Source: Algisphaera agarilytica
Lineage (GTDB): Bacteria; Planctomycetota; Phycisphaerae; Phycisphaerales; Phycisphaeraceae
Direction: 5' to 3'
DNA: 64,000 bases
NCBI RefSeq assembly: GCF_014207595.1
Contig: NZ_JACHGY010000001.1
Location: 3,354,836 to 3,418,835 of the forward strand
In this document: in pieces, positions 50,151-54,313 of the stretch
How the letters are laid out: each line of letters begins with the position of its first letter
Position numbering within the stretch: the stretch's first letter is position 1
The notes under the pieces: model-generated
What the model was told of the DNA's origin: nothing
Databases searched by the model: none
What the model saw: only the letters and a program-made list of their open reading frames with translations
Translations under genes and position numbers: made by a program

Positions 50151-50223
50151 GGGGCTGTAGCTCAGTTGGGAGAGCGTTTGTATGGCATACAAAAGGTCGC
50201 AGGTTCGATCCCTGTCAGCTCCA
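50151..50223 (+). tRNA. tRNA-Ala (anticodon GGC)
   Basis: A complete 73-base cloverleaf: acceptor GGGGCTG with CAGCTCC (G3-U70, the alanine identity pair), a 4-bp D stem, anticodon stem TTTGT/ACAAA with loop ATGGCAT, a short variable loop, and T arm GCAGG-TTCGATC-CCTGT. The discriminator is A and CCA is not encoded. It reads GCC, a frequent codon in this GC-rich genome. It has its own promoter and terminator. Confidence 0.97.
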
Positions 50224-50243
50224 CTCCCCGTGTAATACGGATT

Positions 50244-51407: not shown

Positions 51408-51481
51408 GGCCCGGTAGCCCAATTGGCAGAGGCACACGACTTAAAATCGTGACAGTGTGGGTTCGAACCCCACCCGGGCTA
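51408..51481 (+). tRNA. tRNA with UAA anticodon (predicted Leu) but class I variable loop
   Basis: A full 74-base cloverleaf is visible. Acceptor GGCCCGG pairs with CCGGGCT, with G1-U72 at the end and discriminator A. D stem GCC/GGC has three pairs. Anticodon stem CACGA/TCGTG holds loop CTTAAAA, so the anticodon is TAA. T arm GTGGG-TTCGAAC-CCCAC is canonical. The variable region is just five bases (ACAGT), whereas bacterial tRNA-Leu normally has a long arm. CCA is not encoded. Amino acid identity is inferred from the anticodon. Confidence 0.8.
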
Positions 51482-53089: not shown

Positions 53090-54313
53090 TTAAGTGGTGT
53101 AGTCGGCGTTGATGTGGATGTATTCGCGGGTCAAGTCGCAGCCGAGCCACTCGGCCGAGGCTTTGCCCAAGCCTAAGTCCACCTCGATTTGGACTTCTTT
53201 CGCGGCCATGGCTTTGGCCAGTTTGGCGGGGGGCTTGAGGCCGAGCTTGGTGGGTTGGCCGTGCTCGTAGATGCTCATACCCGCGATGCGGATCGACAGC
53301 GTGTCCTTCTTCAGTTTCGCGTCGCTCTTCCCGGCGGCCATGGCGATGCGGCCCCAGTTGGGGTCGGCCCCGTGGAGCGCGGTTTTCACCAACGGGCTGT
53401 CCACCACCGAACGCCCGACACGGTCGGCGTCCTTGACGCTCGCGGCGCCGCTGACGCGCACCCGCATGATGCGTGTCACGCCTTCGCCGTCCCAGATGAG
53501 CTGTTCGCTGAGGTCGCGGCAGAGGTCGGTGAGGGTTTCGACGAAGCGATCAAAGACTCTGCCCGGTCCGGTGATGGCGCGGTTCTTGGCCTGGCCGTTG
53601 GCCAATACCATCACGCTGTCGCTCGTGCTCTTGTCCGAGTCGACCGACAGCCGGTTGAAGGTCTCGCTGGTCGCCGCACGCAGGGCGAGCTTCAGCGGCT
53701 TGGAATCGATCGCGACATCGGTGGTGATGAAGGCGAGCATGGTGGCCATGTTCGGGGCGATCATGCCGCTGCCCTTGCAGATGCCGCCGAGGGTGATGGT
53801 CTTGCCGCCGAGGGTGACGGTGCGAAGGGCGGTCTTGCGGACCAGGTCGGTGGTCAGGATCGCGTCCGCCGCGGCGTTGTCGGCCTTCTTGCCCTGGGCC
53901 AGCGTCGGGGCGAGTTGTTCGATGCCCGGCAGGACTTTGTCCATGGGCAGGCGGTGGCCGATCACGCCGGTGGAGGCGACCAGGACTTCGCTGGGGTAGC
54001 GCAGGCCCAGCGCCGCGGCGGTGGTTTGGCACATGGCCTCGGCGTCGCGCAGGCCTTGCTCGCCGGTGGCGACGTTGGAGGTCCCCGAATTGCAGACAAT
54101 TGCCCGGGCCTTGCCGTTGCGGACGTGCTTCTGGGAGACCAGGACGGGGGCTCCCTTGACCTTGTTGGTGGTGAACACCCCCGCGGCGGTGCAGGGCGTG
54201 TCCGAGACAATCAGGGCCAAGTCCGGCTTGCCGCTGGGCTTGATGCCACAGGTGCTGCCCGCGGCGCGGAAGCCGATGGGCCGGGTGATGCTGGTGGGGG
54301 AAGTTCGATCCAT
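53090..54313 (-). CDS. argJ: Arginine biosynthesis bifunctional protein ArgJ
   Basis: ArgJ transfers the acetyl group from N-acetylornithine to glutamate and also makes N-acetylglutamate from acetyl-CoA. The 407 residues include KGSGMIAPNMATMLAFITTD, where the chain self-cleaves before the nucleophile Thr, and NRLSVDSDKSTSDSVMVLANG and NWGRIAMAAG of the second subunit. It is divergent from fba. No other arg gene is in the window. Confidence 0.96.
   Translation of the reverse strand: MDRTSPTSITRPIGFRAAGSTCGIKPSGKPDLALIVSDTPCTAAGVFTTNKVKGAPVLVSQKHVRNGKARAIVCNSGTSNVATGEQGLRDAEAMCQTTAAALGLRYPSEVLVASTGVIGHRLPMDKVLPGIEQLAPTLAQGKKADNAAADAILTTDLVRKTALRTVTLGGKTITLGGICKGSGMIAPNMATMLAFITTDVAIDSKPLKLALRAATSETFNRLSVDSDKSTSDSVMVLANGQAKNRAITGPGRVFDRFVETLTDLCRDLSEQLIWDGEGVTRIMRVRVSGAASVKDADRVGRSVVDSPLVKTALHGADPNWGRIAMAAGKSDAKLKKDTLSIRIAGMSIYEHGQPTKLGLKPPAKLAKAMAAKEVQIEVDLGLGKASAEWLGCDLTREYIHINADYTT

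What the first reader, a model, noticed from the sequence alone, without database searches (positions are those of the whole stretch)
51408..51481. tRNA with UAA anticodon and a short variable loop
The fold is complete (anticodon loop CTTAAAA, T loop TTCGAAC), but the variable region has only five bases. Bacterial tRNA-Leu normally belongs to class II with a long arm, so this gene has the architecture of class I and the anticodon of Leu. G1-U72 at the acceptor end is also uncommon. It may be an atypical tRNA-Leu, a tRNA charged with another amino acid, or a tRNA with a regulatory task at the rare UUA codon.
Basis: partly seen in the sequence, partly recalled or inferred. Interest (0 to 1): 0.62.

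Follow-up and report, generated by a model that had tools for sequence, protein, structure and literature searches.

The report
Class I tRNA-Leu as sole UUA decoder
This bacterium reads the leucine codon UUA with a leucine tRNA that lacks the long extra arm bacterial leucine tRNAs are said to have; the same short form turned up in many actinobacteria and phages, so it is a real, functional, apparently undescribed architectural variant and not a re-coded or regulatory tRNA.

Summary
Bases 51408-51481 (+) encode a complete tRNA with anticodon UAA and a five-base variable loop. It is not a pseudogene or a miscall. In 22 orthologues all 21 tested pairs form in every sequence, 14 with two-sided changes, including the 15-48 tertiary pair. 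A class I Leu(UAA) model built only from other bacterial contigs and viruses ranks it first among its genome's tRNAs, 92.3 bits versus 71.6 for the next. The genome has class II tRNA-Leu for UAG, CAA, CAG and GAG but no second UAA tRNA, no group I intron, and one LeuRS. UUA codons in genomes with the short tRNA align with leucine as often as other Leu codons do (72%), and occur in leuS, dapF and argJ. So it is an ordinary leucine elongator and the only UUA reader. In its taxonomic family short and long forms are almost mutually exclusive and share a locus in some genera. The short form also occurs in 29 of 98 actinobacterial genomes with a hit and in many phages. "Other amino acid" is rejected; "regulatory" is not supported. 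Charging and origin remain open.

The parts
51408..51481 (+). tRNA-Leu(UAA), class I architecture (74 nt without CCA)
   Evidence: ARAGORN; Rfam RF00005 60.5 bits; class I Leu(UAA) model R1 92.3 bits; 22-sequence covariation
51408..51414 (+). acceptor stem 5' strand GGCCCGG (pairs with 51474-51480 CCGGGCT; G1-U72)
   Evidence: sequence; GGCC start shared with family class II genes (19/23) and class I genes (13/23), but 1/112 in other bacterial contigs
51417..51433 (+). D arm GCCCAATTGGCAGAGGC: three-pair stem G10-C25, C11-G24, C12-G23, unpaired C13/A22, A14, A15, G18G19, A20a
   Evidence: alignment
51440..51446 (+). anticodon loop CTTAAAA, anticodon TAA at 51442-51444
51452..51456 (+). five-base variable loop ACAGT; U48 pairs with A15 (G15-C48 in one relative)
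51457..51473 (+). T arm GTGGGTTCGAACCCCAC
51481..51481 (+). discriminator base A73 (leucine determinant); CCA not encoded
   Evidence: A73 in 23/23 family members
50151..50223 (+). tRNA-Ala(GGC), conserved neighbour marking the locus (Rfam span; ARAGORN gives 50151-50224)
   Evidence: synteny
53090..54313 (-). argJ, conserved neighbour marking the locus; contains one UUA codon
   Evidence: Pfam PF01960 478.5 bits; synteny

Best explanation
The gene encodes a working elongator tRNA-Leu(UAA) that has a class I body: a five-nucleotide variable loop and a remodelled D arm in place of the class II long arm. It is charged with leucine by the genome's single LeuRS, which would recognise A73, A14, the A15-U48 pair, G18G19 and A20a, all kept here, and which in E. 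coli does not need the long arm. It is the only tRNA that reads UUA. In an ancestor of part of this taxonomic family it replaced the usual class II tRNA-Leu(UAA) at the same chromosomal locus. The same short type is the sole tRNA-Leu(UAA) in many Actinomycetota and is common in phages and tRNA arrays. Shown: fold, covariation, absence of a second UAA tRNA by three searches, one LeuRS, UUA = leucine, shared locus. Inferred: charging by this LeuRS, expression, and the path of replacement.
For: Fold and covariation: 100% of 462 pair cells, 14 of 21 pairs with two-sided change, 0 of 500 shuffles as high. Model test with no family member in the training set: 92.3 bits, next tRNA of the genome 71.6 (an array tRNA-Leu). 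No other UAA tRNA: 73 RF00005 hits typed with ARAGORN; class II model over the whole genome returns only Leu CAA, GAG, CAG, UAG, plus one UGG tRNA, above the window gene; no group I intron. One LeuRS over the cut-off, confirmed as leuS_bact 955.8 bits. UUA aligns with L in 72% of 207 aligned cells in class I genomes, against 72% for CTG and 74% for CTC. Identity nucleotides: A73 23/23, 15-48 A-U 22/23 and G-C 1/23, G18G19-A20a 23/23 in the family; these, and the dispensability of the long arm in E. coli, are reviewed in PMC9976931. Family distribution: class I pattern in 24 of 51 genomes, class II in 19, both in one. Locus: class I beside argJ and/or tRNA-Ala(GGC) in most genera; class II in the same setting in G034, G023, G026. 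On a LeuRS tree the trait needs 3 changes against 10.2 for shuffled labels.
Against: No transcription or charging data. No sigma-70-like promoter or terminator was found around the gene, though the scan covers one promoter type only. The genome is in six contigs (99.75% complete), so a missed second gene cannot be wholly excluded. The UUA test pools several class I genomes and 41 sites, with few sites in this genome alone. The LeuRS tree has 14 open forks of 27 and its bootstrap had not settled.
Confidence: 0.92

Rival explanations
1. The tRNA is charged with another amino acid, so UUA is reassigned or ambiguous in this organism.
For: The body is class I, as in most non-Leu/Ser/Tyr isotypes, and no class II tRNA-Leu(UAA) exists.
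Against: UUA aligns with leucine 72% of the time in genomes with this tRNA, the same as CUG. Leucine identity nucleotides are all kept. The next-best scores in the genome with the class I Leu model are other leucine tRNAs.
Confidence: 0.02
2. The tRNA has a bldA-like regulatory task: it is limiting, and UUA is kept for special genes.
For: UUA is rare, 58 of 4032 Leu codons in the sampled genes of class I genomes, against 126 of 4870 in class II relatives.
Against: UUA occurs in leuS, dapF, argJ and probably ispD of this genome, so it is needed for housekeeping. Rarity is expected from high GC at third positions.
Confidence: 0.04
3. Origin by horizontal gain: a phage or tRNA-array class I tRNA-Leu(UAA) displaced the resident class II gene.
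For: The D arm and variable loop match phage and actinobacterial class I genes; at least 120 viral stretches carry the type; this genome carries a 28-tRNA array with three class I tRNA-Leu, and G019 has an array with a class I Leu(UAA).
Against: The gene sits at the same locus as class II genes in relatives. Its acceptor start GGCC is the family's class II one (19/23 class II, 13/23 class I) and is rare elsewhere (1/112 bacterial, 5/78 viral contigs). The D-arm match is partly forced by the search pattern used for the outside sets.
Confidence: 0.4
4. Origin in place: the resident class II gene lost its long arm and its D arm was remodelled (A9, C12-G23, C13), giving the same solution as in actinobacteria and phages by convergence or by gene conversion of the core.
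For: Same locus and same acceptor start as family class II genes; T arm GTGGGTTCGAGTCCCAC is the commonest in both.
Against: Needs several linked changes that reproduce the outside class I core; no intermediate was seen among 51 genomes.
Confidence: 0.5
5. Pseudogene, tRNA remnant at an integration site, or a false call.
For: No promoter or terminator match nearby; CCA not encoded.
Against: All pairs kept with compensation in 22 sequences; only UUA reader in the genome; no integrase among the neighbours examined.
Confidence: 0.02

Closest known systems
Bacterial class II tRNA-Leu(UAA) (as in E. coli, and in most of this taxonomic class)
   Same: Anticodon UAA, anticodon loop CTTAAAA, A73, A14, A15-U48, G18G19, A20a, three-pair D stem with unpaired 13/22, same locus and acceptor start as in relatives of the family.
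   Different: Variable loop of 5 instead of 15-18 nt; A9 for G9; C12-G23 for G12-C23; C13 for G13.
Class I tRNA-Leu(UAA) of Actinomycetota chromosomes (Mycobacterium, Nocardia, Corynebacterium, Microbacterium and others)
   Same: Whole architecture, D arm GCCCAA..GGCAGAGGCA, variable loop NCAGU, sole UAA tRNA matched in 27 sampled genomes from the global scan, mostly actinobacterial.
   Different: Acceptor stem (GCCCCC type) and often encoded CCA; acceptor lineage not shared with this family.
Phage and tRNA-array class I tRNA-Leu (cyanophage P-RSM6, Cronobacter phage S13, Myxococcus phage Mx1; short tRNA-Leu(TAG) of a Mycobacterium cluster, PMC6582537)
   Same: Same D arm and five-base variable loop, G1-U72 frequent.
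   Different: There they sit in tRNA clusters or phage genomes, in clusters as extra copies; here a single chromosomal gene is the only UUA reader.
Animal mitochondrial tRNA-Leu with short variable loop
   Same: Short variable loop with leucine identity from A73 and A14 (PMC9976931).
   Different: Organellar, with its own LeuRS; no sequence comparison was made here.

Membership tests
tRNA-Leu isotype (bacterial leucine identity set) | Discriminator A73 | tested here: met
   Base 51481 is A; 23/23 in family
tRNA-Leu isotype (bacterial leucine identity set) | A14, A15-U48 tertiary pair, G18G19, A20a | tested here: met
   one relative has G15-C48, a compensatory change
tRNA-Leu isotype (bacterial leucine identity set) | Codon read corresponds to leucine in proteins | tested here: met
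   UUA aligns with L 72% (207 cells), CTG 72%
tRNA-Leu isotype (bacterial leucine identity set) | Charged with leucine by the organism's LeuRS | not testable with these tools
   One LeuRS present; needs an aminoacylation assay
Class II tRNA | Variable arm of 10 or more nucleotides with a stem | tested here: not met
   Five nucleotides, ACAGT; 66.9 bits with the class II model against 92.3 with the class I model
Class I tRNA-Leu(UAA) of Actinomycetota and phages | Five-base variable loop, A9, C12-G23, C13, D arm GCCCAA..GGYAGAGGC | tested here: met
   Model R1 built from other bacterial contigs and viruses only: 92.3 bits, best in genome; A9 21/23 and C12C13 23/23 in family class I, 0/45 in class II
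bldA-type regulatory tRNA-Leu(UAA) | UUA absent from essential genes | tested here: not met
   UUA in leuS, dapF, argJ
bldA-type regulatory tRNA-Leu(UAA) | Growth-phase dependent tRNA supply | not testable with these tools
   Needs tRNA-seq over growth
Mistranslating or re-coding tRNA | Anticodon and identity of different amino acids | tested here: not met
   Anticodon and identity nucleotides are both leucine
tRNA-array member | Lies in a dense cluster of tRNA genes | tested here: not met
   Only two tRNA genes in 64 kb

The most novel reading that the evidence does not exclude
Class I tRNA-Leu(UAA) is a separate, widespread lineage of leucine tRNA that moves between phages, tRNA arrays and chromosomes and has displaced the essential class II gene at its own locus; the loss of the long arm may protect UUA decoding from enzymes that recognise the long arm of Leu/Ser/Tyr tRNAs. 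The displacement path and the protection are not tested here.
Probability: 0.2. Interest if true: 0.72.

Novelty: new variant of a known kind. Interest (0 to 1): 0.5.

Why it matters
[quoted passage not shown] Here one complete isoacceptor, the only UUA reader, lacks it, and the same holds for many actinobacteria. I found no paper in the searchable library that describes this for chromosomal genes; only a cluster-borne short tRNA-Leu(TAG) is noted (PMC6582537), and subscription papers and tRNA databases could not be searched. It gives natural material to test which parts of tRNA-Leu bacterial LeuRS needs, and it matters for tRNA annotation and tRNA-seq pipelines that sort bacterial Leu tRNAs as long-arm (for example PMC6297222).

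Tried and rejected
Group I intron hiding a class II tRNA-Leu(UAA): none found in the genome. Second class II UAA gene missed by ARAGORN: whole-genome search with a class II covariance model found none. Integration-site remnant: neighbours are an RNase H-like protein, a coiled-coil zinc-ribbon protein, a fructosamine-kinase-like protein, ArgJ and class II aldolase, no integrase. Reassigned UUA: rejected. Dedicated second LeuRS: only one hit over the cut-off. Promoter and terminator scan was uninformative. My first family pattern was set one base too long and returned class II genes only; a second pattern covered class I. Paper searches for a description of chromosomal class I tRNA-Leu found none.

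Full report
1. Observation. The window holds two tRNA genes, tRNA-Ala(GGC) at 50151 and the reported gene at 51408-51481 +. The sequence reads GGCCCGG TA GCCCAATTGGCAGAGGC A CACGA CTTAAAA TCGTG ACAGT GTGGG TTCGAAC CCCAC CCGGGCT A. The variable loop is five bases, the acceptor ends in G1-U72, the discriminator is A73 and CCA is not encoded.

2. Is it a real, selected tRNA? Relatives were taken mostly from other genera of the same taxonomic family. In an alignment of 22 sequences every one of 462 pair cells forms a standard pair; 14 of 21 pairs change on both sides in some relative; none of 500 shuffles reaches the observed pairing, two-sided changes or covariation score, and partners slid by one to three columns pair in 30-47% of cells. 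The 15-48 tertiary pair is A-U in all but one sequence and G-C in that one. This is a maintained class I fold.

3. Is there another UAA tRNA? Class II tRNA-Leu exist for UAG, CAA, CAG and GAG (84-86 nt). None has UAA. A group I intron, which interrupts tRNA-Leu(UAA) in some bacteria, was not found. A covariance model of class II tRNA-Leu(UAA), built from 26 relatives, was run over the whole genome: only the four known class II Leu genes and one odd class II tRNA with anticodon UGG score above the window gene. The short gene is therefore the only UUA reader found.

4. What amino acid? The genome has one LeuRS over the family cut-off (leuS_bact 955.8 bits). UUA codons in genomes with the short tRNA were compared with aligned residues of homologues: leucine in 72% of 207 cells (41 sites listed), against 72% for CTG and 74% for CTC in the same genomes. 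UUA thus means leucine. The leucine determinants reviewed for bacteria (A73, A14, A15-U48, G18G19, A20a; PMC9976931) are all present, in the window gene and across the family. The same review states that the sequence and folding of the long arm do not matter for E. coli LeuRS and that variants without it stay active. Charging by the single LeuRS is an inference from these facts.

5. Regulation? UUA is rare (1.4% of Leu codons in the sampled genes of class I genomes, 2.6% in class II relatives). But it occurs in this genome in leuS, dapF and argJ and probably ispD, which scores just under its curated cut-off. A bldA-like reserve of UUA for special genes is therefore not supported.

6. Distribution. 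In the window's taxonomic family (51 genomes) a pattern for class II UAA tRNAs matched 19 and one for class I matched 24; only one genome, G063, had both, and the class II copy there is of an odd type. In a sample of 298 genomes of the class, the class I form appeared among the listed matches only in this family and in one genome, G049, of another family of the order (the list was cut). In 27 genomes re-scanned for both forms no class II UAA gene appeared, although the pattern would not see an intron-split gene, as may exist in the cyanobacterium among them. In a sample of 149 genomes of the phylum of one Mycobacterium, 98 had a match and I count 29 of these as class I. The viral collection also stopped at its limit, with 120 stretches, and annotated phages carry such genes, for example cyanophage P-RSM6, Myxococcus phage Mx1 and Cronobacter phage S13. 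Because the scan pattern fixed CCCAA and GGYAGAGG, D-arm identity in these outside sets is partly by construction; A9, A73, U48, the acceptor stem and the variable-loop bases were free.

7. Independent assignment. A covariance model built from 32 class I Leu(UAA) genes of other bacterial contigs (mostly Actinomycetota) and viral contigs gives the window gene 92.3 bits; the next tRNA of the genome, the array tRNA-Leu(CAA), gets 71.6, and the four class II Leu genes 42.9-56.1. With the class II model the order reverses: class II Leu genes 72.9-87, the window gene 66.9.

8. How the replacement came about. ORFs around 41 loci were clustered. The class I gene lies beside argJ and/or tRNA-Ala(GGC) in most genera. 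In G034 the class II gene follows the same tRNA-Ala(GGC), and in G023 and G026 it lies beside the argJ cluster. The two forms thus alternate at one locus. On a tree of 30 LeuRS proteins the trait needs three changes against 10.2 for shuffled labels, none of 500 as low, though many forks are unresolved. The acceptor stem starts GGCC in 19 of 23 class II and 13 of 23 class I genes of the family, but in 1 of 112 other bacterial and 5 of 78 viral class I genes, which points to continuity with the resident gene; the D arm and variable loop look like the outside class I type. Displacement, remodelling in place, or a mixture by gene conversion all remain possible.

9. Known or new. Short variable loops on leucine tRNAs are known in animal mitochondria, and a cluster-borne short tRNA-Leu(TAG) was noted in Mycobacterium (PMC6582537). 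A 2023 review says the long arm is otherwise universal. I found no paper describing chromosomal class I tRNA-Leu(UAA) as the only UUA reader, within a library that lacks most subscription papers. I file it as a new variant of a known kind: functionally an ordinary tRNA-Leu, structurally outside the stated rule.

Noticed in passing
G000:C1:320837-320920 + (L078:101-184; L468): Class II (84 nt, long arm) tRNA with a Leu-like D arm and A73 but anticodon UGG (proline codon CCA) and C33; near recA, with an IS1595-type transposase gene just downstream; full-length identical match only in this genome among 51 of the family (weak 73% matches in two). Could be a dead copy or a mistranslating tRNA.
   Followed up: partly
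G000:C1:2815935-2816017 - (L077): The only chromosomal tRNA-Cys(GCA) found outside the array is class II: 83 nt with a long variable arm and U73, the reverse of the leucine case.
   Followed up: partly
G000:C1:2039855-2048441 (L061): Array of 28 tRNA genes including three class I tRNA-Leu (CAG, CAA, GAG) and a tRNA-Thr(AGT); a cstA-like gene lies just downstream.
   Followed up: partly
L158 (G019:C180): Relative with an array of 38 tRNA genes, holding class I tRNA-Leu for CAG, GAG, UAA and CAA and a predicted tRNA-Sec.
   Followed up: no
L085, L088, L047, L059 (G063, G068, G025, G010): A second, odd class II tRNA-Leu(UAA) type with anticodon loop YTTAAAC and a different acceptor stem in some family members, perhaps from arrays.
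   Followed up: no
L225 / G346:C1:76667 and 89594: Actinobacteria bacterium IMCC26103 carries two class I tRNA-Leu(UAA) genes about 13 kb apart.
   Followed up: no
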